Under the pieces are notes generated by a model, which saw only the letters and a program-made list of their open reading frames with translations, searched no databases and had not been told where the DNA came from. This document shows, in pieces, positions 9,725 through 64,000 of a stretch of DNA of 64,000 bases. The stretch is from assembly GCA_035079385.1 (NCBI GenBank), contig JAVHKY010000018.1, positions 62,001 to 126,000 on the forward strand. The letters run 5' to 3'. Both the position numbers and the translations under genes were made by a program. This stretch comes from Aspidiotus rigidus. Lineage: Eukaryota > Arthropoda > Insecta > Hemiptera > Diaspididae. Every line of letters starts with the position of its first letter. The stretch's first letter is position 1.

Positions 9725-9786
9725 AAACAATAAAGAGGAATACTCCGACGTGGAGTAAAAAATGCAAACCGCAGAAAAAATGAAAA
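9725..9786 (+). repeat. Left inverted repeat of PLE-1
   Basis: This 62-bp segment, starting AAACAATAAAGAGGAATACT, is the reverse complement of 10805-10867 apart from one A in a homopolymer. The pair brackets a PLE 3' portion. PLEs are known to carry pLTR-like ends in direct or inverted orientation. Confidence 0.9.
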
Positions 9787-9787
9787 A

Positions 9788-10804: not shown

Positions 10805-10867
10805 TTTTCATTTTTTCTGCGGTTTGCATTTTTTTACTCCACGTCGGAGTATTCCTCTTTATTGTTT
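10805..10867 (-). repeat. Right inverted repeat of PLE-1
   Basis: Reverse complement of 9725-9786 with one extra base in a T run. It marks the right boundary of PLE-1. Confidence 0.9.
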
Positions 10868-27300: not shown

Positions 27301-30300
27301 CACGCATTCTGTACAGTAATTCGTCTCAATATACGAGCCAATTCCGAATAAATCTATTTAGCGTGCCATCACACGCGCGATTATTTGCGCTCTTAGATTT
27401 CATTGAATATTCCGTACCTACAACACGTACGAGTAATGCACACGTAATTGACATAATTTTATTTATATAATGGCTCGTCGTTTACTGTAAATATTATACC
27501 AGTAATCGCATCTTCATCGTCCCAACCATAGACACGCTCGTTCATGTAAAAATCTCTTCAATCTTCCTAACACTATATTATACTACGTACTCGTCTATTC
27601 ATATAGGCTAATAATTTTTGATTATACGCTACGTATGAGATATCGAAGTCCGAGTAGACATTTTCAGTCTCGTACATAATTCTACCCTCAGCGTGAAAGA
27701 GTTAACAATGAAAGGACATATCATTAATCTGAAAAACGTATTAATATTTTTAATAGACGACTCTTCTTCTTCTTCGTATTTTTTCTCATCACATCGGAGA
27801 TCATTTTGTTCACGTACCAACGTACACACGTATTATTAAAGAGCGATGATGACGATACGATGTCGGTGGATGAGCGCGGGCGACATCGTACGCGACCCCT
27901 TCGTGTCCTAATTTCTCTTCGTGGCCGATCCCGGCGTAGAGTCGCGAATCTTTCGTAAGTCGTTTCAAAAATTGACGCTCATTACAGTAATGTTATTGCC
28001 AATATTGCGACAGTATGTATCGCGGATAATAATTCGATGTGGCGACGTAAAAAAAAAAACTGTAATTACGAATCCAGAGGGTGTTAACAAGCGAAAAACA
28101 GGTCGCAAAACCAATTTCCACATATTATAAACACTGAGAGGTGTATGTACATTATATACGTCGATAATGTACAATATTTTCATCCACGTATATGTATGCA
28201 AATGACAAAAAAAAAAGAAAGAAACGAAGGCAAACAATAATGTCTCTTGAGCACCGATAGAGATCAAATAGTAATCGTCCTATGTTTATTTTGTAATTAT
28301 AATACGAAATTGTTACGAAATGCATTCCGCGCTTCGTTAATAATTGTATTAAAATCGCGAATAAAATACGATTCCGAAGAATGAGAAAAAAAAAATGAAC
28401 AATAAGACTTATTTATGTATACACGGGGTTTTTGAATTACGATATACTTATTCTATAGCATCTGACTATAATTCTCTGATATATTATACAAAAAAAAAAA
28501 TGCTTGTACATTTTATCTCGACCTCTTGGTTATTTAAAGGACACATTGGGGACGCCGTACGCGTGCATTCGGTATTCCATTCGTGCCCCTTTTCTTCTCA
28601 CTTTTCTTTGTATACTCTAGCTGTAAACTTTATTACGAGTGCGTAATTTACTCAAAATTGAATTAATAAGAACGCCCTCGCCCCATTCCTATTGGTGATC
28701 GTTGCAAGAACCCTGTCGTTCGCACGTTTTTTTTTTTTTTTTTTTTTTTTCGCATAGTTAAGAGATCGACGACCTCCTCGAGAGATGCGGTTTGCACGAG
28801 GAGGAAATTTCAATGAGATCCATTCGAGGGGCTTTTCATCCTTCGATAAAATTTTGTACACTCGCACTGCAGTGATGAGGTCAAGAAACTCTGGAGGGTA
28901 TGAATTTTACCTCCGAGCAGGATTTTTCTATTTCGCTCCCAGAATAGGGTAAATGTTTTTAAGGTAGGGAAATAGGTAACTAGTTTTAATTCAGTCATTG
29001 CGGAATACAGTTGTAAACGACTGGAGGTCGGAAAAGCTAAGACTCGTTCGGAAACTTTAAAAAGCTTAGCGCAGAAGCTGACATGTCTCCTCCAGAGACA
29101 CTTTACTTCACCTCAGGGTCTGGCTTACGGGCTCACTTGCTCTGCCCGTACGCCCCCTCCCCCTCTGGCCCCAGTTTACCGCATATTAAGAGGGTATTGG
29201 GCTATGGTAGCCCAACATAGTAGACTGTATTTTAGGCCGAGTAAAAAAATTTATGAGACATACCCTATCTGGTTCTCGGGATGGCGAATTATTGGAAATG
29301 AAGAATAAGATTCATTCATTTAAACGATACAAAACCGGAACGTTTTCCGTTGAAACCTCATAATCAAAAGTTGGAAGTTGGAGCAGAAACGACGATGGCA
29401 CAAACAAACCAGTGAATCATGGAACGGCACGATGAGTAAAAGAGTATGAGTCAAGAGTGTAGCGTAATGGTGAGAAGACAGGAGAGGAAGAAGATAAGAA
29501 CTAGAGGATTAGAAAGAAAAAGGATATCCAGGATAACAATGTCAAGGAGAATCATTGTTGAAAGTCGACGGGAAAAGTTTCTTAACCGAAGCAAACTCGG
29601 GAACGATTTCATTGAGCAGAACGCAATCATTAGCAAGGTGATGCTGGGTGATTTCTCACGGATTTTACCATGCTCAAAAGCTACCAATCTGAACGTTCGA
29701 TGTGGAGAAAAGTTTCACTCCCTTTGAGGAAGTTATGATTATTTTTTATGAGATGCCATCTCGATATGTTCTCCAAATCTCATATTATTCAACTCTCGTT
29801 TGGTTTCGTAGGTATAAATGGTGGTGCAATTATTGCATTTTAGTTTGTAGACTCCGCTTCTATCATAGGTGGGACGGAACCTAAGGGAGTTATATCCCGG
29901 AACCTGAAAGGCTTCAGAATACGGACAAGTTCCAAGAAGAATTAACCCAAATTTACATTTGTCTCCGAGATCCAAGTTCTCGAAAGAGAGGTTATGGAAA
30001 GTCGACACTTTACGGCCGAACTTTCTCTAAACGAGCACATCCACGTCAATCTTCCCCTCATTGGCCTGAGTTGACTGTCGGATAATAGCCTTCTCGCAAT
30101 TGAAGGCGGTTCGGCTCAGAAATAAACGTTCTGGCGAAGCCAAATAAATAAAGATCATTTTTCAATGTCTTTTTATGGTAGTTGCTCAATCCAGCTACCA
30201 GTTAAGACAAAATAATTTTTGATAGCAGATACAGGCACAGTAAACACATCAACCAGCTTAAATCTGTTTGTGACGTCATTGATATCCGTGACGTCTAGTA

Positions 30301-33300
30301 CACCTATTTTAATCAAACTAGCTGAAGACTCGCTCGCCTCGCTCCTTCGTCCTCATTCTTGGCTAACTCTTCTGGATCAAGTGAGAGATTCCTCGCAAAT
30401 TTCCTGGGAGGGAATGGTAGGGAAAGAGGATTTTAAACTTGGGCATGCAGATTTCCAACAGATTTGAACCTGCGGATTTCTAATAGACAATTGGGGTGCC
30501 GATGTCGGTGAAGATATTAGTCCCGAATTTGCGAATTTTCGATAGCGGATAAAAGGACGGTAGGATATCAATCAGTTTAAACCGCCTTGCGACGCCATCA
30601 CCATCAGTCGAATCTACTGTGACGTCATTAGTTTGCGAAGTCATCAACATTCACGGCTTAGTATAGCCTAGTAGGGGGGGGGGGGCAAACCAGCCTTGCG
30701 GATTTCCAATAGTAGCCTATTTTAAAGCTCATACAGTCCAATATAATATATTTTCGGACTAGGGAACTCCAACGCGGACTAGCGGATTTTTGGATTAGGT
30801 CGCGGGGACAACGCCTAGGAATCTAGTATATTGTATGCTAAGCATAGTATAGTCTAGTATCAATTTTGGAGCACAGTATAAACCTAGTTCAAGGCTAGTA
30901 CAGCATAATATGTATGCTACTCTAGAGGATAGGGAGAAATCCACGGATGAGGCTGTAGGAAAGCGGCGTTCTTGTGGGCAGAGAACCTGAAAGAGGACCC
31001 ATGGATGGTGATTTCGAAAGACTAGAATTTTCGATAAATATACTAACGTCATGGCAACCTTTAGCAATGGAGATGGAAAGATCGAGAAAATTTAGATCGG
31101 ATGGTGGGAAACTTGTTGTTTAAGAAATTAAAAAAATCAAACCTGCCCACAGGCAAATAATGTCGACGTACGGGTACCAATACCGGATGTGGCGGATTAA
31201 GTAATTCCCTACCTGGATAATATCATATTCGACCAGCTTTAGAAATAGCTGGGAGGCGACAGAGCTTAGAGGGAATCCAATTGGAATTTTAACGCTTTTG
31301 GAGAAACGGTAAAATTACCTGCATCGAACTTGCAGAAATTTTCAGGAAAGCAATCGTTCAGAAGCCTAGGCTAAAAATTCAGCGGCTATCTCGAGGGGGA
31401 TTTTGGCTTCGCCAAACAGTTTCATTAAGTAAAGGAGTGGTACACCAAGGTAAGGGGGGAGGGCGTTAGAAAAGAGATCACTGACGTTGATAGGAACAGG
31501 AGGTTTAATATTATGAAGTTTCTGAGTGAGATGCAGAGAGTTCTGAGTAGTCAATTTGAGTCATTAGTCGAGAAACTAGACAGGTTTGTAGAGGGAAGAG
31601 GGTATAGTAGGATACGACAGGACTGAGTTTTACGAAGCTCATGAAGATGGTGTGGAACAGGATTAGGAACAAGAATAGATTTCTCGAGAGGTACATAACC
31701 TTACATGCTGGACATACATAGAGAATTTGACGATGATTGTTACTCGTCAAGAAGTCATTGACCTTTCCTCGACCTTGGATCGCCACAGATTGCAATTTTA
31801 CTGTGTTTTTTCAGTCAATATTTTGATAACCTCGTCGATAAAGGATTTTCAGCTGAGAAATTTGATAGCGGGAAACTGTTCGTTCAAAAAGTCGAGAAAA
31901 TCATGAAGGATGGGTAACTAACTGACCTGCCTAGGCCGCAGACAAGGAATGTCGTCGACGTACATGTACCAATACCAGATGTTGGTGTTGAAGTCATTCT
32001 CTACCCGGGAGATCTCAGAACTGAAGAGTTTCTAGAACGACTGGTGCCCAGAGAAGATCCGATATGGATTCTAACGTCATTAGGTAAATGGTATACAAGT
32101 TCCCATCGAACCTGCCGAAATTTTTTCTAAAATAACTCTCTGTTCTTTATTCTCTTCTATTCTCGGGGTCAGTCACTCTGCTTGTAAGCCTCCCAACGGT
32201 CTCCATTATAACAGGCCTAATAGCGATACTGCTCGAGTCTTCCTTTTACTAGGCCTCCGAATGACGGCTGATAACAAGATACTTGCAGATTTTAGGATTG
32301 AGTGCTACTACTTAGTCTCCATTATACTGAGCTATTCAGTATACTAAACAATACTAGGCCTACTATTAACCTTCAAGAAGTCAGTTTTACCAGATGGTGA
32401 TGATAAAATATCGCCTATTCCTTTGGCCGAAGGAGCCTAAAATCGCCAAGTACAAAATTGCTGTCGCTGAACCCATGAAGTAGCCCAAAGTCGCCAACAA
32501 TCGCCAGATTTGATTGTCAAAGCGCCCAATTGGCGACAAAAAATCGCCAAGTTTCATGTAGCTCAATTGGCTTGTAGGAGCCAAAATATCTTTTGTGAAG
32601 CCCAATTGGCGCTTTATAGCGTAACCTGGCAACACTGCGTGAAGCCAGACCTAACATAAGACTTACATACAGCAGTAAAAGCCTTTAAATCACTTACAGA
32701 TTACGAAGACGATGAAAGGTGGTTTGAAATCTTTAGAAATAGGATCGGAATCAAGGTTGATGACGTCATAGTTTATGGTAAAGAAAGAGTAGGGATACAG
32801 TATACAGGATTATTATGAGTGGGGGGAACTCGCGGGGTGGTGTGAACTCGCAAATTTTGGAATTACGGGTCAAGATTCGAGACTTGTGAAACTAGCAGAT
32901 TTTCAGGATCATATTTAAGGTTCTTTTCCATGGGGTGGGAGGGGGAGTAACCGGTGGGAAGGGTAAATTTCGGAATTAGGAACTACGATTCAGGAAACTT
33001 CTGGAGGGATGTATTTTTTTGGGGGGGGAGCCCAATTCGAAGGTGTTGTGTGAACTTGCAAATTTTGGGATTAGAAGCTAGGATTCAGGAAAGATATGAA
33101 ACATGTTAAAAGAGAAGTAAAGAGAAGAGAGGGAGAGTAGTGAGAAAATCAATGGACCGCCTATTATCCGTACATGGCTCCTTCTGAATTTTCATACGTA
33201 CACGATTTATTCTTTCTAAGGAGACACGAGTAAGTCGAATTCTTTCTTTCAGTATGTCGAATTTTTCCTAAGTCGAATTATTATATTATTAAAAGAAAAT

Positions 33301-36300
33301 TTCGCGCCGCCAAAATTCCGGGTCTTAGGCTACAGCGTAGTCAGCGTATAGGGAAATCCGGCGCTGAAAGAGTGAAAAATTCAAGCTGCTACCTCGATGA
33401 GGACATTGGCCTCGCCACAAAGATTCACTAGGAGCAAGGAGGACGTTAAGAAAGAGATCATCAACGTCGAAAGAAATCAAAACAAAGTGAGAGGGATGTT
33501 GAGTATTTCGAAATTTCTCCGTGAGGTCGAGAAAGCTTTGAACGGATTAAGCCACTGGTCGAGAAACATAGCGAGTTTGTAGGAGGGAGGGGATAATATG
33601 TAGGGTTTCAGGAAGCCCATGAAGAAGGTGTGCGATGGAGTTCGGAAAAAGGGCGGATTTCTTGAGAGGCACAGTCACTCGCATTGATGGCTTCCCTCAC
33701 CCGCAGGATTCCCTTTCTTTCTAATCCTCTAGTCCTTATCTTCTTCATCGTTTCCTTCTTCTTGCGCAGACACAGTTTCAGTTGGTGTATATTATGCGTA
33801 TGCCGTTCCACGACTCATCAGTTTGTTTCTGCCAACATGTTCCTGAAAGTTCAGTTTATTCCAAACTTTCTTCGAACACAGTTTTTCACTCAAAAACGTT
33901 CTGAATACATACGAATTTAGCTAGATTGAAATATGTACCATAACAAAGGGAATCGAAACTTTCACAATGATCGAGTATTTCTCAACCTCATCCGGTCTCA
34001 TTAATTCGTCTATGCAAACTAAGAACTTTGAAACTCAATACCTGAACCAATACGTAGGACCACATTACCCAAAGCAGAAAGAAATTGGACCAGGCTCCAA
34101 TGCACTATACGACACTAATTCCACTCTGTCTTAATCGTGGGCAACTATTCAACTCGACCATTGCAAGTCATCGTGACGGTTTGCTGCGACATTATGGTTC
34201 TTCTCGACGAGAGTAAAGGAAACTCGAGAGCCGAAAACCTGCAATCGATTCGAAATAAATCCACGATACCACCCAAGATCGATGACCCACACCTTGTCCA
34301 TATTGTACAGCTTAATTGACACGATTCGAGCGATATTATATTCGCGTAAAAAAACGCTATCGTCTATCTCCTACTCGCATTCTCTATCTCGTTTCAATGA
34401 TAATCAGTTAGAAGAATAGAGGTCGCATCGAGGGTACGTGCGGGCATTCATTATTATTTACCTCTATTTGTTGCTGTCATATTTTATCAATTGCACGAGA
34501 ACAGCATTAATGCGTTCAGATGTTGCGTTCACCGTTATACAGCAAGAGTCATTCGCGTAAATCATCTTCTTTTCGCGCGGACTCCGCTCCGTTTGAAATT
34601 GATACATGCCAAGACAAATAATGGATTTCACAGATATAGCCTCCATATGTATGCAGAATAGAACGATCTTCTACGGTACACTTCCTGGTCAACCTCGTTG
34701 TTGTAGTTTTATCGTAATATTATATTATATGCGCGAGATAATACGATACATATAATACGCGTATGCGCGCTACGAGAGTGTATTTTGTCGGAATGCGACA
34801 CGTTGCGCTGATTTGCAGGGTGGCGGCGCTTCGTGCCAAATGGGTGTGTGTGACATAAGCGTGCACGTTTCATGAATTCGACCTTAATAATAATAAATAT
34901 TATGAAAGAGAGACGCCAAGTGCTCTCGGTCGCAGCGAGAAAATGCCTACGGTTTTGTCGCAATCGAGAAAGCGCATTCGGTGTTGTGTTCGCGATATTC
35001 TCGCTGGGCGCGACGATACCGAGATGCGCGCGACCCTCGGTCCGGAAAGCGAAGGATGAAATCAAGGTAATGTTGATTTTGAATTTTTTCTAAGTTGAAA
35101 GGAAGAAGAAGCACAAATTCAAGGCAGACCTTCGGAAGAGGGTCCAAAGCATTCTTTCTCTTTCACCTGTACACTCACGAAATTCCAATGCAAACAAATC
35201 GAGGAGACAGGAGTTTGATTGAAGACCCCCTATTCCAAAACTTGTTCGAATTTCTTTGCTCATACCATCATTTCGGTTGTTCCATCCATTCTTTAAAGGG
35301 TCCCAAACTCAAATTCCAATGTACCGTACATAAGCTCAATGAACTCTGTCCCGTGTTTATACATGTGTATAGACATATCTTACACGCATTACGCTATAAT
35401 AAAGTATTATATCGTATGAAATCCACGCACGTAAAATACTGTAACGTTTCTTTATTCGCGATCAACACGACTCTTTTGGCCCCATGTTTACATTCGGGTT
35501 GGACAATGGCCAACAGATGTCCGCGAACTGAGACCGACCATAACATTAACATCATAAAGCGCGCGTCCTGCGCGTAATAACGGCATCAAACAGGGCGGAT
35601 TCACGACGATCGCATTGACGCGTTTGGTCCGCCGCGCGAGTGTCAAAACTGCAATACGTCTAACCGTAGGCACGCGGTACATATGCGCATTCTGTATCAT
35701 TGGAACATAGTAAATAAACTCTTCACAATATTTAGTTCAAACATTTCAAAGTGCAAACATGCAACGCCTTCGTATTTCATTGATAATCGTTTTAATCGTG
35801 CAATAATACAAGTATACCCATGCGGGAGAGTTGATAAACCATCAGCGAGATTCTCCCGGTCATTCGGCAAAATTATGCACAACAATAAGAGTAAGTTACA
35901 ATACTCGCACGACCGTATTCTCGGTTCGAATAATAAAAATAGTACGTCCTACAAACCGTTATTTTGTGACGACCGTATAACCTACACTTTTCAGCCTTTT
36001 AGTGTGCTCGAATAAAGAACAGGGACGGTGTGGGTGGTTGGTCGATTGTGGAACTTTCAACGGATTCGATGGGCGAGATTAGTGTTAACGGATTTGCAAT
36101 AAAGTGCAGCGAGAATTCTGCGCTTAGATGACTGCCACCACGCGCGTTACCGTTTGTCGATATTTCATGACTCATGAGCAATAAATGTATGGTAGGAAAA
36201 AGAGAGCCATCGCGTGGACCGATCGAGATTACTGCTTCATTTTTGCTGGTGTACATAAGTATATGCACGCCGAGGAAATGGAATTACACGTTAAGAAAAA

Positions 36301-39300
36301 TATGACATGTCTTGTTAGTGCCGTATACATACTGGTATACAATAGTTAAGCATCGAACAGTGATCATTATTATTTGTCGAAGAAAATTATAATGAGATAT
36401 GTGTATCTGGTTTGTTGATAATGGTGCACACGCCCAGCTAACAGGTCGCGTTAATGGGTTGCGAGTGCGCGTAGGTGAAATATTTTCAAATATTATGAAT
36501 GAAGAGGAGAACTGATGAGGTCGATTGAGGTAGTCATAAAAACGCGTCAAGAATAGCTTCCCGTTACCCGATGAAAGCTGGAAGTCTGGAGAAAAGAGCT
36601 CTGAAGTATGACCCACATGGTGACGAGCGTGACTTCTTAGAGGCAAAGGCATCTCCAGCACCGGGAGATTCTGCTCGAGATATTTTCACAATTTTGCAGA
36701 AATACACTAGTGACCGAGGATAAGAAAAAGGACCTAGACGGGAGTTTTTCTGACGACATCACATTTTGTATTTTTAAGGTTGAGAATACTCTTGCAAAAA
36801 CTGTCTCGAAAAACTGTCACGGGAAGTCATCAATTCTCCTGACCTACTCCAGCAGGGACTTGAAAAAATTTAGGCTTCGCTATTTATGAACCTGGTCCCT
36901 TAGCCCTCATACTACTCGCCCAAACCGAAAGTAAACTACGCCATACTAGACCTAACATACAATTTACTAGGGCTTAGAGCTGCATGCGGCATTTAAGGCT
37001 AACTAGCTCATCCTACTCCCTGTATGCAGCGTCACGTCACGGTTTTATTGCTATGACGTCATGAAGACCTTGATCTTGGGAAGTGAGAATTTCAAGTCCC
37101 TAAAGTAGGTCAGAGACTCCGCCCCATCGTAAACCAAAATTTGTCCGAAAGGCAACGGAAACACACATCTCGCCCATGAGACGGATTCCGGTTGAGAACA
37201 TTCTCAAATTTTTCCAACACCTAATGATTCAAGGACTCTCGCATAGGCAGAAGATTCCAGGTAGGGCCTCAACCGGAAATTTGTCCATTCTCGTTATCTC
37301 ATAAGCTCCCGTTTTAGTAATGCACCCACAATTTACTTTATTTGGGGGAGGGTACATCCTCAGGAAAAGTGAGTATCCGCTTCCAACTTTGCTGACTTCA
37401 TCAACCTAAATCAAGTTAGGTTGCATAGATGGGGTGCATTCTCAGAAAATGTCCATTTCTGATTTTGATGACTTTATCAACCTGAATCACGTCAAGTCAT
37501 TTTGCATAGAGGAGATGCATCCTCAGAAAACGTACCTGTCCCCGGCCGAGTTTGATGATGTCATCAACTCGTGACGCCATAAACCTCAGACACGTTAAGT
37601 TATTTTGCCGAGAAGGGGTGCATCATCAGAAAACGGCCATGCCCGAATTTGATGACCTCATCAACCTGAGTTAGGTTTTGTTCCATAGAAAATATTAGTG
37701 CTCGACTTCTATGACGTCATCAAACCGAGTCTCATGTTAGGTCATGTTGCATAGACAGGGATCGTTTCTCAGGAAACGTCCATTTCTGACTTTGATGACG
37801 TCATCAACCTGAGTTAGATTTCGTTTTTTGGATAATTGACCTGTCCAACTTCGATGACGTCATCAACTTGAGTCATGTTAGTTGCATAGAAGGGATGCAT
37901 CCTCAGAAAACGTCCATGCCCGACTTTGTTGACGTCATCAACCTGAGTTAGGTTCTGTTTCGTCGAAGGGGTACATCCTCAAAAAACGGTCATGTCCGAC
38001 TTTGATGACGTAATCAACCTGAGTTAGGTTTTGTTTCATAGAAAATATTTGTGCCCGACTTCGATGACGTTATCAAACTGAGTCTCAAGTTAGGTTTTGT
38101 TTCGTCGAAGGGGTGCATCCTCAGAAAACGTCCACGTCCGACTTTGTTGACGTCATCAACCTGAGTTAGGTTCTGTTTCGTCGAAGGGGTACATCCTCAA
38201 AAAACGGTCATGTCCGACTTTGATGACGTAATCAACCTGAGTTAGGTTTTGTTTCATAGAAAATATTAGTGCCCGACTTCGATGACGTTATCAAACTGAG
38301 TCGCAAGTTAGGTTTTGTTTCGTCGAAGGGGTGCATCCTCAAAAAACGTCCACGTCCGACTTTGTTGACGTCATCAACCTGAGTTAGGTTCTGTTTCGTC
38401 GAAGGGGTACATCCTCAAAAAACGGTCATGTCCGACTTTGATGACGTAATCAACCTGAGTTAGGTTTTGTTTCATAGAAAATATTTGTGCCCGACTTCGA
38501 TGACGTTATCAAACTGAGTCTCAAGTTAGGTTTTGTTTCGTCGAAGGGGTGCATCCTCAGAAAACGTCCACGTCCGACTTTGTTGACGTCATCAAGCTGA
38601 GTTAGGTTCTGTTTCGTCGAAGGGGTACATCCTCAAAAAACGGTCATGTCCGACTTTGATGACGTAATCAACCTGAGTTAGGTTTTGTTTCATAGAAAAT
38701 ATTTGTGCCCGACTTCGATGACGTTATCAAACTGAGTCTCAAGTTAGGTTTTGTTTCGTCGAAGGGGTGCATCCTCAGAAAACGTCCACGTCCGACTTTG
38801 TTGACGTCATCAACCTGAGTTAGGTTCTGTTTCGTCGAAGGGGTACATCCTCAAAAAACGGTCATGTCCGACTTTGATGACGTAATCAACCTGAGTTAGG
38901 TTTTGTTTCATAGAAAATATTTGTGCCCGACTTCGATGAAGTTATCAAACTGAGTCTCAAGTTAGGTTTTGTTTCGTCGAAGGGGTGCATCCTCAGAAAA
39001 CGTCCACGTCCGACTTTGTTGACGTCATCAACCTGAGTTAGGTTCTGTTTCGTCGAAGGGGTACATCCTCAAAAAACGGTCATGTACGACTTTGATGACG
39101 TAATCAACCTGAGTTAGGTTTTGTTTCATAGAAAATATTTGTGCCCGACTTCGATGACGTTATCAAACTGAGTCTCAAGTTAGGTTTTGTTTCGTCGAAG
39201 GGGTGCATCCTCAAAAAACGTCCACGTCCGACTTTGTTGACGTCATCAACCTGAGTTAGGTTCTGTTTCGTCGAAGGGGTACATCCTCAAAAAACGGTCA

Positions 39301-42300
39301 TGTCCGACTTTGATGACGTAATCAACCTGAGTTAGGTTTTGTTTCATAGAAAATATTTGTGCCCGACTTCGATGACGTTATCAAACTGAGTCTCAAGTTA
39401 GGTTTTGTTTCGTCGAAGGGGTGCATCCTCAGAAAACGTCCACGTCCGACTTTGTTGACGTCATCAACCTGAGTTAGGTTCTGTTTCGTCGAAGGGGTAC
39501 ATCCTCAAAAAACGGTCATGTCCGACTTTGATGACGTAATCAACCTGAGTTAGGTTTTGTTTCATAGAAAATATTTGTGCCCGACTTCGATGAAGTTATC
39601 AAACTGAGTCTCAAGTTAGGTTTTGTTTCGTCGAAGGGGTGCATCCTCAGAAAACGTCCACGTCCGACTTTGTTGACGTCATCAACCTGAGTTAGGTTCT
39701 GTTTCGTCGAAGGGGTACATCCTCAAAAAACGGTCATGTACGACTTTGATGACGTAATCAACCTGAGTTAGGTTTTGTTTCATAGAAAATATTTGTGCCC
39801 GACTTCGATGACGTTATCAAACTGAGTCTCAAGTTAGGTTTTGTTTCGTCGAAGGGGTGCATCCTCAGAAAACGTCCATGTCCGACTTTGTTAACGTAAT
39901 GAACCTGAGCTAGGTTTGGTTTCATAGAAAATATTAGTGCCCGACTTCGATGACGTTATCAAACTGAGTCTCAAGTTAGGTTTTGTTTCGTCGAAGGGGT
40001 GCATCCTCAAAAAACGTCCACGTCCGACTTTGTTGACGTCATCAACCTGAGTTAGGTTCTGTTTCGTCGAAGGGGTACATCCTCAAAAAACGGTCATGTC
40101 CGACTTTGATGACGTAATCAACCTGAGTTAGGTTTTGTTTCATAGAAAATATTTGTGCCCGACTTCGATGACGTTATCAAACTGAGTCTCAAGTTAGGTT
40201 TTGTTTCGTCGAAGGGGTGCATCCTCAGAAAACGTCCATGTCCGACTTTGTTAACGTAATGAACCTGAGCTAGGTTTGGTTTCATAGAAAATATTAGTGC
40301 CCGACTTTGATGACGTCATCAAATTGAGTCACAAGTAAGGTTATGTTGCATAAAAGGGATCGTTGCTCAGAAAACGTCCATTTTGGATTTCGATGACGTC
40401 ATCAACCTAAGTTTGGTTAGGTTATATTGGATAGAACGGATGCGTCCTCAAAAAAGTCTATATTTGAGTTTGTTGCGCAATCTGAGTTAGGTTTTGTTTC
40501 ATAGGAAATGCCCGTGCTGACTTTGATGAAGTCATCAACCTGAGTCAAGTTGGGTTCTGTTGTGTCCGAGTAGTGCATCCTCGGAAAACGTCAATTTTTG
40601 ATTTTGGTGACGTCATCAGTGCCCACCTTTTAGAAACGAAGAAAAACAAGGCTTTACCCGCACAAGCCTTGTTTTTCTTCGTTTGAATTATTCCTTGCAC
40701 GTATAAAAATTCCTTTCACCTTTTAGAATATTCTTCTATGCTCGAAATGTATTCAAAGAGAGGAAACAGAAGAAAGATGAAGTAGATCAAGAGCTTGAAG
40801 AGAAAAAGTTTTCTTCATCAAAAAGAGAGAAGGTGGTACCGTGCTTTTTCATAAAATTTAGTGTACTTTGGTACTTCAAAAACGTGCATAGTTTGAGGCT
40901 AGCTGTTTTCTGGAGAACAGAACAGAGGAGCTTGTGGATTCCCCGCTGCCGTCGTAAGCCTCTAAATTTTTGGGGGCGTTGTTTCCTCTTTTCCTTCACC
41001 ATTCAAAATGATTTTATTGTCATAAGCTCAGCTTTCAACAGAATTTTCTTTTCCAACGTTCATTATTTTAATGTTGAGCGCTTATAGATTTTTGCAACCT
41101 ATATCCCCCTTCTTCTCATTCAATAAAGCAAAATTTTGTTCCCTAAAGTCTTCCATTGCTATATATCCTTCAGTGATCAGTGCTCAATTTTTTCCGCATG
41201 CATTTTCCTCTTTGACTTTCGGTATCGATGGAATTATTAATGTACGAAGTTTCTTTTCAACTCATCACTCGAGACGACGAGAGTTTCCTCGCATTTTCCT
41301 TTTTCTGGTCAAACTAGGAGCTGGCATCGATCTCTCATCGCGAGGACACGACACAGGAAACGAGCTTCTTGGTAACAAGCCACAGAGTGAAAGCAGCGAG
41401 CACTAATTAACATACGTTCCATCATCAATTCACAATCGATCGAAACATACATTGAGCCATACCTTTTTCTTACAACTGTATTGAACGCATTGCCAGTAAT
41501 TCCTCTGCAGTCCGGTCGCATTGCTAAGTTACTCTCGATCGTACAATTATGAATTCTTTCCCTTCGAAACATGAAAACAGAATTAAGTCACTCTGAATTT
41601 CGCAATACCCGAACCCTTCAACCTCATCGCGAGTATAATTATCACGATTCCGAGCTCTTGCAACGAAGATTTTTAAAAATATGTACGCATTCTATACCCG
41701 CTCGCATCGGGTAATGCACTTTACTAATAAGCTGCACGCATAATCTGACCGTTTATCAACAGATAAAATCACGTACTCCGTTTCAGAACCGCGCGATGCC
41801 TCAGAGCAGTAGCCTCTGACGTGGAATACGGAGCGCCTAATTGACATAGTTCGAAATAATGAAATACCTCGTCAGAGGATAGAGAATCGACATCTACACG
41901 TGAAATCGTATCGAACGAAGAATTTTTCTATCGCACCTCTTGTGTAAGATACACGCTACAGCTTCGCGTAGGTTATCTCCACGCTCTCTCGTGTCACATA
42001 ATGTACAATCTTCCGGAATCTAGTTTTTAAATCCGCGCGAGATACGCGAGAAACGTTTCAATTAGGTACGCGTCTCTCTCGGTCTGGCGTTCGAATGTGA
42101 CCGCGGCGCTAACCCGTTCGTGTCCGTCCGATCACGAAAAAACTGATCGACTGAAGTCGGGATGTCACGGTTAAATTGGTGGCCAGCGGCTAAGTACCAG
42201 CAACGGACCTAACAAGTTGTTAGCCACAATTTATAATGATAAGCGTCGTATATACAAATATACATTCGCTGTTTAATAATGTGCGCCTCAATTTTCGATT

Positions 42301-45300
42301 TCCATTTCCGTCATTTATTGACGGGCGCGCGTCCAAGGTATAAAATGAAACCCATATTGTACTCGGCGTGTAAACATAATATTATACAGATGGGCATTAC
42401 TTTTGCATGAGAAGAAGTTACGTAAAAATTCCACTCGTCGTCGCGGTAGCCAAATTTCTACACATATACATGTACGGTACCGGCCACTTCTGGACCGACG
42501 CTGTTGATTGTTTCGTAATCTCCAGATGCGGAACAGTATTACAGAGAACATAGAAAGTCTTACAAGTAGAGTGTGTATCGAAAAGATTTTGAGAAGAGCT
42601 TCGGGCAGGAAAGTCGGAGAGAAATGTACTAGTTTTGATGAGCACAACTAATTTCCAATTGAAACTGGTCGTTGTTGTCCGTTCATCTTGAAGGTTGAAT
42701 CACGTTCATGTTCACGTATGGTAAAAATATTCCTCGATATGTGCAGCCGATTTATCAATCAGGTTATCACTGCCTACGTACCCGAAAATTTGCCTTCAAC
42801 CTTGATCTTCTACATCTGTCAAGTATGCGGACTTCTAAACAGGTGTGGTATGTGTACGCGGGTTACACTTTATTAGCTTTAGATGCGCTGTGGATGTATT
42901 TTTATCCTAATGGACGTACCTAAGATAGCATGTGAATTTTGACGTTTAACTGATATGATTGTATAGAGTGAGCTTTCTCCGCAGCAAATCATCTGTCCTA
43001 GAATTTGACAACAGGAAAAGCTACAAACTTTTTCTTTTAGCGGGGAACCCGCTATCCATTTTGTTAGGAGATTACACCCTCAGAAAACGTCCGCGTCCGC
43101 GAAGTTAGTAACCTAAGGTTAGGTTAGGTTACGGGACTTTGAAGAATTTCGAGTCTCGAGCTATATATGATAGGAGGGGGACTTAGAAGAATCTCGAGTC
43201 TCGAGCTATATATGAAAGGAGTGGGACTTAGAAGAATTTCGAGTCTCGAGCTATATATGATAGGAGGGGGACTTGGAAGAATTTCAAGTTTCGAGCTATA
43301 TATGATAGGAGGGGAACTTGGAAGAATTTCAAGTCGTGAGATATATATGATAGGAGGGGGACTTGGAAGCATCGTGACTTTCGAGCTATATATGATAGGA
43401 GGGGGACTTAGAAGAATTTCGAGCCTCGAACTATATATGATAGGAGGGAATGTAGAATGATATTTCGATTTGAATTATATGACAAGATTATCAACTCAGT
43501 TCCACACCACCTGAGAGGTCGAGTTAAGGAATTGCGGGTTCCCCACTGCCATTGCAACGTCTGCAATGGCTTCTAATTTTTTTTTCCCCTTTTTTTTAAT
43601 AAACCGTTTATTAGAAAAAAAAAAAAAAATACATGAAGAAAATACGGTTTCTGAATAGGGCTTCGACCGAAGAGTCATTTCGCCCGATGATGTACCATAA
43701 TTGTGAGGTAGAAGACAGGGAGAAGCAAGTGGATTAGATAGTGAGGGCAGGAGAGAGAGAATTTATGAAGGAGTACAGAGCAGGAAAGACAGAGAGGTTG
43801 GTGATATGGAGGCAATTGAGTGCAGCGAAAGGGCGTTGAATATTAGAGTTGACAAGTGAAGAGTGGCGTGTTTTTTGTTGAGTGGTAAGATGTGGACATT
43901 GAAAAAGAATATGGTTTAAGTCGGCCGCTATCTTGTCTTGCGTATGAAAAGGACAATCAGGAGATATGTTTGGTAAAATTTTGCTAAATTGTACGGGAGC
44001 CTGTTGTGATTGAATCGAAGTCTGCAAATTGAGACAGTGAATTTTCGGTTGACGTAGTTTGACAATATGTACCAGGGATGAGTGAGGATTGAGTTTTCTA
44101 GATGGAAGTATTGGGATGAGAGGGAAATGTTTTCCAAGTAGTGTCTTTGCCATCTTTCTTCGTTTTCTTCTCGGGCTATGCCTAAGAGGAAATTTGCACT
44201 AATGAATGAGTATTTAGCGGCAGACTGCGAGGAGCAAGCCGCTTTAGCTGCCGAATCAACTCGTTCATTGCCCTCCATTCCCTTGTGGCTGGGGATCCAC
44301 ATAAAAGAAGTGCTGATGTTCTTAGAGTGAAGTAGATGTTGAAGGAGGAAGCGAGTGTTAATGATAGTGGGGCTGATATTGTGACTGTAGGGTGATTCTA
44401 TGATTGCATGAAGGGCCGAGAGAGAATCTGAAGCGATAAGGATTTGGTTATGCGGAGAAGAAGAAGGATTAGATTGAGATACGAAGTTAAGAGCCATGAA
44501 AATAGCAGCAACTTCGCAGTCATAGGACGAGGATCCGGGGCAAATATGGAAGTTCCTTACAACTCCCGAAAAGGAGTCGCGTAGAAGGCCGCACCGCAAC
44601 CGGAAGTCATCTTTGAGCCATCGGTGTATATGATACGATAATCACGGAATTGAGTTTCAATTAGTTCGGCAAATTGTAGAGGTATGGCAACCTTATGTTT
44701 CCGTGTCAAAATTTCTAACGGCCAACGATGAAAAATTTCGAAATAGGTGAGGTATTGGTAAGGATAGCCCTCTATCGATGGGAACGAGTGTAGGAGTTTG
44801 GAATATTTTTTTATAATGCGAGATAACAAAGGTTTTTTGGAGGGAATGAAGCGCCAATTACGAGAAATATTCGAAAAGGAGAGAATGAGCTTTCTATTTG
44901 TCCAGGAGGCCAAGCGAGTACAATATTTTTGTGTAAGATATATTCTACGGAGTTGTAAGGGAGGAATTTTTGTTTCAGCTTCCATAGCAACAATTGGTGT
45001 CGTTTTTATGGCTCCTAAAATGTAGCGAAGGGCCTGATTTTGAAGTACGTCGAGTTTTTTCAGACGAGAGGGAGCAGCGGAACCGAAGAGGAAGGCCCGT
45101 ATTCCATTTTACTACGAATAATGGCTTTGTATAGCATCGACAGGATGATGGGATCACCACCCCATTCGGTGCTAGACAAGGCTTGAAGGATGTACATGGC
45201 CTGAGAGCATTTGGTACGAAGGAAGGAAGTATGAGTGTTCCATGTAAGACGACTGTCGAGGTTGGTGCCTAAGTACTTGAAGAAGGAACAATTTGGGATT

Positions 45301-48300
45301 TGTTCGCCCTTGAGGAAGATACAAGCATCTGCAAGTTTGTAGGGTCTGAAGGAAAACAGAACAGAAACGCATTTTAGAATGGATAAACTCAGGAGTAGTT
45401 GGTCTAGTTTGTTTTGGAGGATTTTGAGGCAGTAGGCCTACTTTGAAGATCGAAAAGAGTTGAGAAGAGGTCGAAATAATGCGATTTTAAATATTCGTGA
45501 TACGTTAGTGATCCTACCGATAATTTTGTGCAGATGAAAGCGAGAACTCGTCACTGAAACATAGCGTAATGGAGGATTGTAGGGAACAACGCTGTACTTT
45601 ATTGGAAGACAAGAGGGGGAATTAATGATAAGCTTTAGTTTCCAAAAATGCCAACGTCGGCATAATGAGCGCTAGAAAATGACTAAAAAGATAAACTTAT
45701 GACGAAGAAATGATTTTGAAGGGCAAAGTAAGACGGGAAACATTATTTCCAAGTTGTCCTAAAATTAAGCTCCTTTTTAAAATATCACGCCGAAGCGGAC
45801 TGGTTTCTTGTTACGATTTCACAAGGGAAGAGGAACGGATACTCTTGCCCACGAGACGGTCGCAGAATCGTTCTAACACTGAGGTGTGTCGAAAATTTTA
45901 GAACGTCTTGATGAGAAACCTGTTTTATGGGCATGAGGGTTATCCTTCCGACGAATTTTGGTTCCCGAGGGGGCGAAGGCTCTTACCTATTCCAGGGGTT
46001 TCGAAAATTTCCACTTCCGTGGGTCAAGTTCTTCGAAGACGTCATTGTTGACTTTGTAGCGATACAATGAGGACTAAGAATACCGGTTCAGATGTAGAAA
46101 GGGCCGAAATTTTTCCCTACTTGCTAAAGTACGTAAGGGCACTGATGAAGTCACCAAAATCAGTACGTTTTCTGAGGATGCATCTTCTTTAGCGATACAA
46201 CCTAACTTGATTCAGGTTGATGACTTCATCAAAGTCGGGCACGGGCATTTCCTATGAAACATAATTTAACTCAGATTGATGACGTCAACAAACTCAAATA
46301 TAGACTTTTTTCGAGGACGCATCCGTTCTATCCAATATAACCTAACCTAACTTAGGTTGATGACGTCATCAAAGTCAGAAATGGACGTTTTCTGAGCAAC
46401 GATCCCTTCCATGCAACATAACCTTACTTGAGACTCAGTTTGATGACGTCATCGAAGTCGGGCACTAATATTTTCTATGAAACAAAACCTAACTCAGGTT
46501 GATTACGTCAACAAAGTCGGACATGGACGTTTTCCGAGGATGCATCCCTTCCAGTATGCAACAGAACCTAATTTGAGACTCAGTTTGATGACGTCATCAA
46601 AGTCGGGCACTAATATTTTCTATGAAACAAAACCTAACTCAGGTTGATTACGTCATCAAAGTCGGATATGACCGTTTTTTGAGGATGCACCCCTCCGACA
46701 AAACAGAACCTAACTTGACTTAGGTTGATGACGTCAACAAAGTCGGACATGGACGTTTTCTGAGGATGCATCCCTTCTAAGCATAATCCAACTTGACTCA
46801 GGTTGACGAGTCATAAATCAAAGTTGGACTCGGACATTTCTCTAGAAACATAACTTAATTTAGATTGATGACGTTAATAGTTGATGACGTCAATGAAATC
46901 AGATACTGATGTTTCCCATAAAACGAAACCTACGTTGGGTTGACGATGTCAAATGGAGGTTTTTGGAAAATGCACCCCTTCTATGCAATATAATGTAACT
47001 TGACTCAGGTTTATGACGTCACAAGTTGATGACATCATCAAAGTTGCACGCGGACGTTTCTTATGAAAGATAATTTAACTCAGGCTAAAGATTATCAAAC
47101 GTTGATGACGGCGTGAAAGTCAGACATCTACGTTTCCTATAAAACATACCCTAACTTACGGTCATCAAAGTCAACCGTGGATATTTCCACTTGAATTACA
47201 GTAATGTCAAACTTCGATGACGTCATCAAAGTTGGACATAGACGTTTTAACTAAAAGTTTTTCAACCATGAATACGAATTATTAAATATTAAATAACGAT
47301 ATGGCTCTGCTATTCACAATAGTTTAATCACAAGAATAAACCCTTGTGATTAAACTATTGTGAATAGCTGAGCCATCTCGTTATTTAATATAGACGTTTT
47401 ATTTTTTTGCTAACAACAGCAAGCATTTCCGCGGGTTTCTCTCCGATCTACAGGAAACTTGACGATACAACCCCGCACAAATGATTCCATTAACATTTGT
47501 CCTAAGAATCCACCAATTGAGCAAATTAGGTCTTACATGTCTATAGTCTCCCAGAGGTGAAAAGGAGAGAGCCCAGTACAAACAAAAAAGTCGATAGAAC
47601 AATGCAACACAAAGGTAGCTCGATTCTACTCAATCCAACTTTGGAGAGGGGGGGGGGGCGAGGCGTGACTAAGGATATGCAGCTGTTGGAAGCAGTGGCG
47701 CAATTAATTTCATCGTTTTTCTCAAGCCCATTTATTTCCTTAGATAAAAAAATAATGATGTCCGAAAAACAAATCCTCCCTCATCGAGGAATGGTGTAAA
47801 AAATTTCGCTTCTCTCGATTAAAAAATCCGAACCACGTCATTGGTTGAGAGTGTAGACTGCGATGGAAGACATCTAAATAAAAGGGTCATCACGATACAA
47901 ATCTATTTCTCCAGCAATACTTTTTTCCTGATTCACTAAATATGATTTATCAGTTGACGAAGGCGAGCGCCTACAGAAGCATTTTCGGATGGCAACTTTC
48001 CTTGCAAGGAAGATAAGATGAAGTAGCTAGTAGCACTTCTCAAATTGTCTTTAATTCATAAAACAACAAATTTGTGCACAATATCTATACACGTTGACAA
48101 ATAATGCGGCCCTTTCTACATGAAAAACCTTCTTACGAGCCTCATTCCGAAGTTATGCTTTTTACAAAAAACTAATAAATCAACAGATTCACATAATTCT
48201 GGCTGTATTCCTTCATTTTTCGCTCTGTCAATCGACCTTGCCAGATAAATAGACTCGATTTACGATAGTTCCAAGTTCAAATCGGTCATTTGTCAGCATC

Positions 48301-51300
48301 CGCTAATACGGTATCAGTTTCTCCTTTCAGCGTTACTCCAACATATAACAAAGTTTGAAACCACTCGCTCCGAGCATTTTTCAAATTGCAGACGCGTGAG
48401 TTTTCTCGATCCGAGTCAAGAAGAGCAATAGTTCACAGAATTTTCACATTGATCGTCTGACATTGCGACGCGCAATTGCCGAGGTATTTCTGTAAGAAAA
48501 CAAAGGTCAGGGTCGTACTCGGTACGTCACATTAGGACGATGGTATTTCTAGAAAAATGGGGAAGAGAAGATGAAGTCATTGCAGCGGATAGACGAAGTA
48601 AGTTAATTACAGAGAGGCTGAAAACCTACACGTAAGAAACTATCCGCATAATACTCCGCATGATTAATGAGTTTAGAAACGGGTGATGAGTGCTTCGAGT
48701 GTAAGCATACATGAACTGTATGTACAGCAAGCTACAACTAGTTTAGTCTCTTGAAGAATGCGCGACCATCTTCTTCCTCCAAAGGTGATCGATTGCATTC
48801 GAAGACGGTTTTGCAGATACATACATGCAATTTAAAAGAAGAAAAATCGTGTAGGTATTTCAGTTAATATTGAATGCGTGATAATGTACGCAATTTCAGC
48901 ACAACCGATACAGAAGTCTTTTACGCAAGTTTATCTATTTATCTGGTCGATCTATATAGGTAGTGAATAATGATGAGCGCCTCATAAATGCATCCTCAAA
49001 ACACTTCTCTGTAACAATATTGTTCGCACTATACGAATACATTATCCACTGTCACCGTGAGAACAGCTGAATAACAATGTGCGTATTATACGGAGGCAGA
49101 GAGCCTTTTCAATCAGTTTGGCGATTGGTTATTAAGATCGGCAAACTTCCTCTGCTTGAGGAAATATCGCTGCTCATCAATGCTTCTCAAGGTCCACGAT
49201 ACTATAATATATTTACTCCGGACCATCAGCCGTATCTATTGAATACTCCACTTTGGGTCGTGAACATTCTTCTCTCTCAGGAGCAAAATAAACAAAAAGC
49301 GAGAAAAAAGGCGAATAATGCTCGTAAATACGTGTGCGTGTACACACTGCACCGGAGTGCACGCTGACCAACATTCGTGTCTTCGAGCTTATGCATGCAC
49401 GCCTTCATTTTCAATAGTTTACACACCATCATCACGACGTTCATTGACAATTTTATAAACCTCGCCGAACAATGTTAACGAACTTTATTATTTTCGTCGT
49501 CTCGAAAAACACACAAGACCGGCACTCTTAAAGAAGGCTCGTTTAGGCGTCGCGTGTCCGGAAAGATATGGTCGGTGCTCCTGTCATCTTCGCGCGAACA
49601 GAGGTCTCAATAAGGATCACGAGATAGAGCAGCGCCGGCGCACCGTACCCATAAATAGAGTACAATTGTAAACGCTGACACGCCAGTAAGTGCAGTTACA
49701 AATACAGACATCGACATCGATGTTAACACAATCATCTAACGAGGCTGGACAACAACAACATTATCGCACAAATATTTATTCGTATGCTGGTACAAAAGCC
49801 GTATACGAACTTATCTGTGGGTCTTTCGCTGCCTCCGTGTATTTGCTTTCGCACTAAGTTAAAAATAATTCTACGGTAGATTATTTATTACGTCCACTTC
49901 GGAGAGCGCAAAAAAAAACGGACTCAACGCAGCGGGGTGCTGTTGTAGGCATGCATAATAACGCCAAATAGCGTGCGTACTGTTTGGCGAGACTTAAAAC
50001 CCAGTCAACTAGTTCAAGTGTGCGCGAAATGGCTGAGATTCTCCCGGAATCTTTGAACTCATCCTGTTTCTCATGTACGTGGTATTTTTATCTAGATACT
50101 CCTTTTTCGGTCATTTTCATCTACGTAATGCTTCTATGTTTTAGATTTAGGCTCTTGTCCAGCTCGGAGAATTCTTGCTTGTTGTTCCCATTTGCGATGT
50201 GCAAATATCAAGCAGTCTTCCTTGTGTTCAGCACTTATCTCTTTTGCACCTATAACGACTTCTTTAAGTCATTTGCACTTACAAAGCCTACAATACTGAC
50301 GTTGGACCCCACCTTTACTCGTGAAATTCTTCGCATCGAAAGAAAGTTTTCAGAATCTGCAATTTGTCGCCGCATCATCACTGAAAAACAAGGCCTTGGG
50401 TACTTCTACAATAGTGCACCGTGATTGGTTCACTTGCCTATATACTGCGTTTCTATTGGCTACCAGGTTTGCTGTCATCCTATTGATTGGTTCTGTTCTT
50501 CCTGTCTCGTCCAATCATCAAACTAAATTATCTTTCACCGACGAACGTGATTACATTGTACCAGAGTCTTCTTCTCTTCATGAGATTTTCTACATCACGT
50601 GTGACTTCAAATGATCCTCTGCTATTCAGTGGAGTATTTTCCGAAAAAAGACTTGCCAGCTTCTTTTTCCCTTGATATTTCGTACTCCTCTTTTTCTGAT
50701 GTCAAACTTCCTCTCAGTCGATACCTTCACACTGTTCAAAATTGAGCTCGTATACTCCGCTGAAGCTTCCCTCATTCTTTTCCTCCATCTGGTCCTTGCT
50801 TATTCTCTTCACCATTAGTGGCTTTTGATGGATGCTCACGTCCACATCATAACTATAGAACGTCTTTATCACCTGATCTGAAGTATATCCTTACTCTACT
50901 GTCTTGGGTTTCCTTCTATGCTTTCATATTCCGAAGGACTCTCTCAACCACGCTTCTAGAGTGTCCATTGGCTACTGCGACCTGATTTACAATCTCTATT
51001 GCTCTCCTCTTCTCTTCATTATTCTTCAGCATGGAAATTGCGTGGTAACCATAGTTCTGAAATGACGCCAGCTTGTGCCTCAGGTGGTGGTAGAAGTGCC
51101 TCACAAAGATTATGTCGGTGTTCGTCAGCCTCCACTAGATTTCGTACTCTATCCTGTTGCTCTCCAGCGTGAGTGTTGAATCCAAATAGTTGACGGTCTC
51201 ATTGCGTTTCCCACGGTTAATTTGATGCCTTCATTCATCACAATCGTTTGCAGAAGGAATTGGTCCACCTATCTGTCAGTGCCTGACCACACACGTATTT

Positions 51301-62009: not shown

Positions 62010-64000
62010 GCCGCTAAGATCTTTCGGTTAACCAACCATCTTTAGAGCACAGACGAAAGCGACTAATCCAACAACAACGAAGACAGAGAAAACCAACTTG
62101 AGGATCATGATTCAACCAGCGAGTCATCGAAGTGTGAGTCATTCTCACAGAATAGCTCAACCAGACCCTCATCAGGAGTATACCTCATTACTCCGATGAC
62201 GTAAGATTCCAATATTTTCTAAAGCCATACGTTCATAGTATGAGTTCTCCCTATGGAGGAGGGAACCAGACCCCTCTTTGACTCTGTGGCCACTTTCGAT
62301 AAGGTGATCGGCAAAGGCCGACTCACCTAATTTACCCTTCTCCCAAGGTTTTTTATGCTCATGGCCCGTATAAACTCCAGGGCAATCGTTGCAGGCCTTA
62401 CTGTAAACACCACCTCTCGGCTAGAGGAATGGGGTCCTTTAATTTTACAAATAAACTTTTTACCGTGTTAGTATTATAATATGCCGGACGGAACCCGAAA
62501 GGACTGAGAACACGGCTCAACTTCAACGAAAATCTACCCAGGTAAGGAAGTCTAATCCAACGTTTCTTCCTATCTAGGCGTGAATCCCTCGGGAGGGAGG
62601 TGGTAGAATTGAGGCTTCTTTTGGTAAGCCTCATACGGACCATTAGGTCGATATCCACGCTAGCCAGGTGCTTAATTGTTCCTAGTTCCTTTTGGAAAGC
62701 GCCCTGACTCAAAGGAATACGAGTCAGACGATGGATCAAGCTATTGAAGGTAGCGATCTTATGTGCAGCTGGACAGAAGGAAGACCCCTTGGATTGTAAT
62801 ATCGGTCGACGTTTCTTTTCTATAAATTCCAAATTCATGGACGCCATCTCTAACCAAAATGGACAAGTCCACAAAATGTATTAATGAGCCACCAACTTCT
62901 AGGGTGAATTTTATGCAAAGGTATTGGCTACTTAAGTAAGTGAGAAACTCACGAAGGAGTTCCACTGGACCGGTCCACGCACAAAGTATGTCGTCCACAT
63001 ATCTCTGCCAGTAAAAGACATGATTTGACAGCACCTGGCCTGAGGAAAATGAGTTGATCTCATATTTGGACATGAATACCTCAGATATCAGAGAGCCCAA
63101 GGGAGAACCAATGGAGATCCCATCCTCATCCGCGAACTCGAAAAAATTTCTCTTTAAATTTTCAGAAGTTGAGGGTCCAACAACCCCTCAGAAGATCAAA
63201 GAATTCCTCCATCTCCTCATGAGGGACACCCGGTTTTACGAGCAATTCGCTCATGTGTTGGATAGTAACAGCCTTAGGGATGTGAGGAAAAAATCCTACA
63301 ACATGAAAGGACCATAAGGTCGTTTCCGGAGGAAGGTTTACGTCCTTCAACCTAGCTGCCAAGAAGCCCGAGTTCTGTACTGAATACGGAGGGGTACAAT
63401 CTACTCGTCATTTAAACCATCGTTCAATAAATTTATCTAATATGTAACTTGGTGACGAGACAAACGACACAACCGGCCGCATGTACTTTAGACAACCCGT
63501 ACAGGAGGGGGGGGGGGGTACCGGGTTAGGTTCCAAAATGGCTTTCATTATAAGTGGACTCTTGATAATAAATTCACTTTTATTAATGATTTTCCTCACC
63601 TCTTCAACAAACTGAGGGAAACAGAAAAGGCTATTTTCCTTGGCCCCACATTGTTTTAGCACATCATGAACACCGGAAACTTAGGACTTTTCCATAATTA
63701 CTACAGCGTTGCTTTGATCTGCCTTAGTAAGGAATAATCCTTCCTTCCTGACCTCCTCTTCAAGTCTTTTATCACCTCAATAAAGGTATTACCCATATAA
63801 GGAAGAGAGGCACTGCCTACTATTTCGGCGCACTTTTTTTGGATGTTCACGCCAGGTCCAATCTTGATTGTCAAGTCAGCCACAACATTAGCAAGAGTCT
63901 CTTGATTCTTAAGAGGGGGGAGGCTAAATTTCAACCCTTTCTCCAACAGGTTCACTTCATCAGAATTATCGCGGCTGGAACTGCTGGACTATTTTACCTC
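62010..64000 (-). mobile_element. Near-complete but frameshifted PLE, runs off the right edge
   Basis: Minus-strand order: N-terminal LEKGLKFSLPPL (63.9 kb), LRQIKATL-KADQSNAVVIM (63.7 kb), RPVVSFVSSPSYILDKFIER (63.45 kb), motif A as FHVVGFFPHIP with His for Asp (63.28 kb), motif B GSPLGSLISEVFMSKYE (63.08 kb), motif C YVDD at 62990-63001, thumb IKFTLEVGGSLIHFVDLSI, connector AHKIATFNSLIHRLTRIPLS, then the nuclease domain with GESAFADHLIESGH and ENSYYERMALENIG near 62210-62330. Several frameshifts, and a deletion removes the YIGET block. The 3' stem motif lies at 62021-62044. It belongs to the same family as PLE-1. Confidence 0.88.

What the first reader, a model, noticed from the sequence alone, without database searches (positions are those of the whole stretch)
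37340..47237. Foldback-like structure with CRE-bearing satellite arms
Two inverted arms of the same subrepeats share an exact inner boundary (CAGTGCCC) and matching subrepeat order at their inner ends, around 5.5 kb of other DNA. The left arm has expanded threefold. This matches the architecture of foldback transposons, yet no known transposase is visible in the centre. It may be a new foldback family or a hairpin-forming segmental inversion.
Basis: partly seen in the sequence, partly recalled or inferred. Interest (0 to 1): 0.75.

Follow-up and report, generated by a model that had tools for sequence, protein, structure and literature searches.

The report
Mobile-element repeat copied in reverse
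The mirror-image repeats are real, but they look like an old, scattered mobile element carrying a long internal repeat array, part of which was copied nearby in reverse, rather than a new kind of foldback transposon.

Summary
Two inverted arms of the same CRE-bearing (TGACGTCA) subrepeats lie at 37388-40623 (+) and 46137-47237 (-), largely in the same unit order, sharing an exact CATCAGTGCCC at their inner ends; the left is three times longer. The foldback reading fails. The subrepeats are dispersed (70 matches), and among those matches only the window has arrays in both orientations side by side. In 14 of 20 fetched loci the array runs into a conserved 3' module. Copies show palindromic subterminal inverted repeats, a 3' hairpin and oligo-T ends: the plan of HINEs, non-autonomous Helentrons. 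The left arm plus the first ~350 bp of the "centre" is one such copy (A, 37312-40971). A second copy (B, 43035-43582) and a LINE fragment fill part of the centre. The right arm is array only and closest to A (89%, against 71-79% at the best-scoring other loci). Best reading: HINE-like insertion, partial inverted local duplication of its array, then recent array growth in A (99.1% identical 218-bp units). No Helentron with matching ends and no clear empty site was found: the class name is probable, not proven.

The parts
37312..40971 (+). Copy A: HINE-like element with 5' module, CRE array and 3' module
   Evidence: 5' end score 53 against shuffled maximum 37; 3' end score 63 against 34; 3' module by blastn to L054 (3e-29), L060 (1e-21), L066 (1e-15) and others
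37312..37387 (+). 5' module of copy A (diverged subTIR, TTTTAGTAATGCACCCAC...)
37388..40623 (+). Left arm: array of 59/76/83-bp CRE units; 37925-39886 is nine 218-bp higher-order copies (mean identity 99.1%)
40624..40728 (.). 81-bp hairpin insertion (40636-40716) between direct repeats CACCTTTTAGAA (40624-40635, 40717-40728) inside copy A
   Evidence: sequence
40712..40971 (+).
   Evidence: (in one search copy A was among the sequences the model was built from)
43035..43582 (+). Copy B: second element with clear ends, carrying 45-bp repeats in place of most CRE units
   Evidence: 5' end score 92-94, 3' end score 83; hairpins at both ends z -3.62 and -3.66; 45-bp array 43133-43448
43583..45437 (-). 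Non-LTR retrotransposon (LINE) fragment, frameshifted, with RNase H domain; right end approximate
   Evidence: Pfam RNase_H E 2.7e-8; ORFs; homologue 51% identical over 83% of the frame
46137..47237 (-). Arm C: inverted CRE array, 13 units, no 5' or 3' module detected at its edges

Best explanation
The left arm is the internal tandem array of one old copy of a dispersed, non-coding transposable element built like a HINE (non-autonomous Helentron): oligo-T end, palindromic subTIR, variable CRE-bearing minisatellite, conserved 3' module with inverted subTIR and hairpin, oligo-T end. Such elements are thought to move by rolling-circle replication driven in trans by a Rep-helicase protein. The right arm is a partial inverted duplicate of that array made at this locus, probably by template switching or strand invasion within the repeat-rich, self-complementary array. 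The left array later expanded by unequal exchange or replication slippage of a 218-bp unit. Between the arms lie a second HINE-like copy, a LINE fragment and other unassigned DNA. Shown: the arms, the modules, the dispersal, single-orientation arrays elsewhere, recent array growth. Inferred: rolling-circle movement, the inverted-duplication event and its order.
For: 3' module downstream of the array on the same strand in 14 of 20 CRE loci; 9 of these 14 were used to build that model, 5 (L053, L062, L063, L064, L069) were not. Blastn without a model shows the same sharing, copy A included. The 3' module alone gives 40 scored matches of 205 candidates genome-wide, 71-81% identical apart from the query itself. 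In one search a 5' end scored at least 48 in 23 of 43 sequences and a 3' end in 22 of 43; 10 carry both in order, 9 of them within 2 kb and copy A over 3.7 kb (null maxima 37 and 34 from 15 shuffles of one locus; the two end strings were hand-made from these copies). Copy B folds into strong hairpins at both ends. Helitron_like_N: 151 matches here, open frames up to 1786 aa, 0 of 14 control genomes. Arm C is 89% identical to A over 648 bp, against 71% over 447 bp and 79% over 191 bp among the best-scoring of 40 loci. In one search the 218-bp unit matches arm C at 88% over its whole length; outside the window the best are 73% over 191 bp and 81% over 106 bp (stretches of 37-71 bp reach 95%). 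218-bp copies are 97.7-100% identical against K2P 0.073 between the arms, so growth followed the duplication.
Against: Copy A's ends are decayed: its 3' end does not fold better than shuffles, nor do those of L076 and L085. No autonomous element with the same ends was found; none of the 40 tail matches lies within 200 kb of a Helitron protein match listed (lists compared by eye). The one empty-site comparison was inconclusive. Outer left units 37388, 37572 and 37850 are as close or closer to units of other loci than to arm C (0.75, 0.76, 0.83 against 0.74, 0.73, 0.81). Arm C stopping at the same array/module junction as A is not explained by a random breakpoint. The genome search with the right arm itself did not complete, and only 20 of the 38 places outside the window were read.
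Confidence: 0.7

Rival explanations
1. Two independent insertions, in opposite orientation, of copies from one subfamily source; the right copy later lost both ends.
For: The family is mobile and dispersed; three family-derived segments sit within 10 kb here; small opposite-strand scraps lie near other copies too (L063, L055, L069).
Against: No other match carries the 218-bp unit at comparable identity over its whole length; the ATCAGTGCCC junction is inside no array of the 40 fetched loci; arm C lacks both end modules.
Confidence: 0.2
2. A true foldback transposon whose long inverted arms are the CRE arrays and whose centre is 40624-46136.
For: Inverted arms, matching inner boundary, unequal arms built of ~220-bp repeats as in Tetris.
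Against: No shared outer terminus; no target duplication: best shared word 7 bp, reached by 6-8% of shuffles and not abutting; arrays elsewhere single-orientation; the centre holds a second element and a LINE fragment, and the rest recurs at 0 of 40 loci; the centre ORFs of 110 aa or more show only RNase H in Pfam (8 of 8 scanned).
Confidence: 0.05
3. Same dispersed element, but a different class: a TIR DNA transposon or other repeat whose ends happen to look HINE-like.
For: Inverted end repeats also occur in TIR elements; no autonomous partner linked by ends; empty site inconclusive.
Against: Subterminal rather than terminal inverted repeats, a 3' hairpin beyond the subTIR, oligo-T at the ends and an internal tandem array in fixed orientation match the published HINE plan (PMC4067079, PMC7492417).
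Confidence: 0.15
4. Assembly artefact (false inverted join).
For: Arrays are hard to assemble.
Against: Arms differ by 7% and in unit number; this contig is 6.1 Mb long.
Confidence: 0.02

Closest known systems
HINE / DINE-1, non-autonomous Helentrons (Thomas et al. 2014, PMC4067079; passages and one section seen)
   Same: Non-coding; palindromic subTIR a few bases from the 5' end and its inverse about 40 bp from the 3' end; 3' palindrome within 8-35 bp of the end; T-rich ends; internal tandem repeats in some copies.
   Different: Internal units carry a CRE core; autonomous partner and empty sites not shown here.
Cg_HINE elements of the Pacific oyster (PMC7492417; passages seen)
   Same: Dispersed satellite-like arrays carried between HINE left and right modules, arrays in fixed orientation to the modules.
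   Different: Units of 59-83 bp in a 218-bp higher order rather than 140-180 bp; here one array also has a nearby inverted copy.
Foldback-type elements: Tetris (PMC4079207; passages seen) and Galileo (search listing and abstract starts only)
   Same: Inverted arms made of tandem repeats (about 220 bp in Tetris).
   Different: Tetris has 8-10 bp target duplications and whole-element copies; here neither was found, and arrays elsewhere are single-orientation.

Membership tests
HINE (non-autonomous Helentron) | Palindromic subTIRs near both ends | tested here: met
   AGCGGGGAACCCGC at 5' and its inverse at 3'; 10 of 43 sequences show both end modules in order; 13 of 14 bases inverse-match in copy B (by eye); copy A diverged
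HINE (non-autonomous Helentron) | 3' palindrome close to the terminus | tested here: met
   Copy B hairpin z -3.66, 12 bp from the end; 1 of the 4 3' ends folded beats its shuffles, the others (A, L076, L085) do not
HINE (non-autonomous Helentron) | Oligo-T ends, insertion at TT, no target duplication | tested here: inconclusive
   T runs at the ends of many copies; only one empty-site comparison, unclear on the right side
HINE (non-autonomous Helentron) | Internal tandem repeats between conserved modules, fixed orientation | tested here: met
   14 of 20 CRE loci have the 3' module on the same strand downstream (9 of the 14 were in the model)
HINE (non-autonomous Helentron) | Autonomous Rep-helicase-endonuclease element sharing the last 60 bp | not tested
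Foldback transposon | Shared outer termini of the inverted arms | tested here: not met
Foldback transposon | Target site duplication outside the arms | tested here: not met
Foldback transposon | Other copies with paired inverted arms | tested here: not met
   0 of 20 fetched 9.5-kb loci; none among the other matches (40 of 108 candidates scored)
Foldback transposon | Transposase of its own or of a partner | tested here: inconclusive
   8 of 8 centre ORFs of 110 aa or more scanned: RNase_H in one, nothing in seven; the two shorter ones were not scanned, and the genome was not searched for transposases

The most novel reading that the evidence does not exclude
The element spreads dense clusters of CRE sites as mobile bZIP (CREB/ATF) binding arrays whose core is kept by selection, and the inverted pair of such arrays here acts as a local regulatory or double-stranded-RNA-forming locus. 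The CRE core is the best conserved stretch of the unit (about 1.65 against 1.10 bits per column, means worked out by hand from the table, 155 units from 31 loci), though units were found by similarity to the window's own units, which biases this.
Probability: 0.08. Interest if true: 0.6.

Novelty: new member of a known kind. Interest (0 to 1): 0.3.

Why it matters
It explains an apparent foldback as a HINE-like satellite carrier plus a local inverted duplication, and shows how a mobile element can seed a satellite-like array that then expands on the spot (nine nearly identical 218-bp units). The dispersed CRE-bearing family is a ready set for testing whether such arrays bind CREB/ATF proteins.

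Tried and rejected
Foldback family: rejected (no shared outer ends, no TSD, single-orientation arrays elsewhere). Right arm as a complete element copy: I first read its outer edge as a decayed 5' end and its inner edge as the start of the 3' module; neither passed (inner edge 34 against a null 95% of 38; on the minus strand no 3' end at 42 or more, and one partial 5'-string match of 43 inside the array, not at its edge). A tidy empty site for L077 inside a Penelope-like element: left flank clear, right flank not. Virus and prokaryote collections: IMG/VR scan gave 0; 29 bacterial or archaeal stretches matching an 18-mer were taken as chance and not used. Rfam: no match in 30000-50000. Organism not identified: the only named hit of the EcKL protein is a chironomid at 24%. 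Papers searched; no claim is made that this family is unpublished. None of the 20 papers listed holds the motif word.
Full report
Check of the observation. The window is C18:62001-126000 of a 441-Mb genome in 102 contigs. It is of an animal, probably an insect, judged by an ecdysteroid-kinase-like gene and a SMAD MH2 exon. Self-comparison shows inverted similarity between 37.4-40.6 kb and 46.1-47.2 kb, best 89.4% over 648 bp, far above shuffles (793 against 25 bits). Splitting both arms at the TTTGATGACGTCATCAA core gives 44 units left and 13 right, mostly of about 59, 76 and 83 bp. Eight of ten right units scored pair with left units in order, once a block of nine 218-bp repeats in the left arm is set aside; the innermost two scored best elsewhere, although the base-level alignment runs through them in order. 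The inner ends share CATCAGTGCCC.

What the arrays are. A 218-bp query gives 70 matches across many contigs (40 of 108 candidates scored, so a lower bound). In all 20 the array lies in one orientation with no inverted partner array in the 9.5 kb held; arrays L053 and L055 have only about 2-3 kb on one side. Opposite-strand scraps exist: in L063 two weak units (10 and 19 bits) and a tail piece (32 bits), in L055 and L069 tail pieces of 23 and 18 bits. Downstream of the units, on the same strand, 14 of 20 have a conserved module of about 280 bp (L050 only weakly; not in L051, L052, L059, L065, L068). Nine of the 14 were used to build that model, five were not; blastn without a model shows the sharing too, copy A included. 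The module alone is a dispersed repeat with 205 candidates, 40 scored. Twenty further copies were fetched.

The element has defined ends. Copies begin with TTTTAGCGGGGAACCCGCTATCTG and end with GCGGGTTCCCCGCTGCC-ATTGCAAAGTTTGCAATGG-CCTCTAAATTTTT (hand-made strings). In one search a 5' end was found in 23 of 43 sequences (some partial) and a 3' end in 22 of 43; 10 of 43 have both in order, nine within 2 kb and copy A over 3.7 kb. Many fetched stretches were too short to hold a 5' end. The two ends are inverse palindromes, the 3' end carries a further hairpin, and T runs bound the element. Copy B in the window folds strongly at both ends (z -3.62 and -3.66), but the 3' ends of copy A, L076 and L085 do not fold better than shuffles. 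This is the plan described for HINEs, the non-autonomous Helentrons: palindromic subTIRs two to four bases from the 5' end and 38-60 bp from the 3' end, a palindrome near the 3' end, T-rich insertion, optional tandem repeats (PMC4067079; oyster HINEs PMC7492417). The genome has 151 matches to the Helitron replication-initiator family with long open frames, and 14 control genomes none, so suitable enzymes exist; a link by shared ends was not obtained.

Anatomy of the window locus. Copy A runs from 37312 to 40971 on the plus strand: 5' module (decayed), array (the left arm), 3' module. The left "inner boundary" is therefore the array/3'-module junction, interrupted by an 81-bp hairpin insertion with a 12-bp direct repeat CACCTTTTAGAA. 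The first ~350 bp of the supposed centre belongs to copy A. Copy B (43035-43582) is a second element with 45-bp internal repeats. A LINE fragment with RNase H follows on the minus strand. All 8 centre ORFs of at least 110 aa were scanned against Pfam; only RNase H was found. The rest of the centre (40972-43034, 43583-46136) and 1 kb of each flank match none of the 40 fetched loci. Arm C (46137-47237) consists of units only; neither end module is detectable at its edges.

How the arms arose. Arm C is closest to arm A: 89% over 648 bp, against 71% over 447 bp and 79% over 191 bp among the best-scoring of the 40 loci. In one search arm C matches the 218-bp unit at 88% over its whole length, while the next loci reach 73% over 191 bp or 81% over 106 bp; stretches of 37-71 bp reach 95%. 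For three outer left units (37388, 37572, 37850) units of other loci are as close or closer than arm C. The junction word ATCAGTGCCC, one mismatch allowed, occurs in no array of the 40 loci (six hits outside arrays). Arms differ by K2P 0.073 over 620 aligned sites, but the nine 218-bp copies in the left arm are 97.7-100% identical (mean 99.1%). The order inferred is: insertion of A, local inverted duplication of its array, divergence, then growth of the left array. The genome search with the right arm itself did not complete, so a common source elsewhere cannot be excluded. That arm C ends at the same junction as A remains unexplained.

Foldback test. No common outer terminus, no target duplication (longest shared word 7 bp, reached by 6-8% of shuffles and not abutting the edges), no paired arms at the loci examined, no recurring centre. 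The claim of a new foldback family fails.

CRE core. Across 155 units from 31 loci outside the window the core columns are the most conserved (about 1.65 against 1.10 bits, means worked out by hand from the table). Because units were found by similarity this is suggestive only.

Changes made on checking: odds lowered slightly (0.72 to 0.70; two insertions 0.18 to 0.20) because of the opposite-strand scraps and the outer units closer to other loci.

Noticed in passing
40636-40716: Small hairpin insertion flanked by 12-bp direct repeats CACCTTTTAGAA inside copy A; not identified.
   Followed up: partly
47286-47391: Near-perfect palindrome, 49-bp arms with an 8-bp loop, just outside arm C; MITE-like; no match in the 40 fetched loci.
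   Followed up: partly
9734-10723 and 62398-63187: Penelope-like element remnants (name by eye): the first has a sub-threshold GIY-YIG match, the second is similar on the minus strand.
   Followed up: partly
845-2274: Direct repeat of about 520 bp (starts seen at 845, 1361, 1891) with a repeated 126-aa open frame (1364-1744, 1894-2274).
   Followed up: no
9725-9786 / 10805-10867: 63-bp inverted repeat 98% identical, about 1 kb apart, around the Penelope-like remnant.
   Followed up: no
G000 C12:7409470/7414103, C66:19244/23777, C71:3477035/3481568, C65:1480345/1484909/1489330, C24:5518322/5522936: Helitron_like_N matches recur at about 4.4-4.6 kb spacing on one strand, which looks like head-to-tail tandem Helitron arrays.
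   Followed up: no
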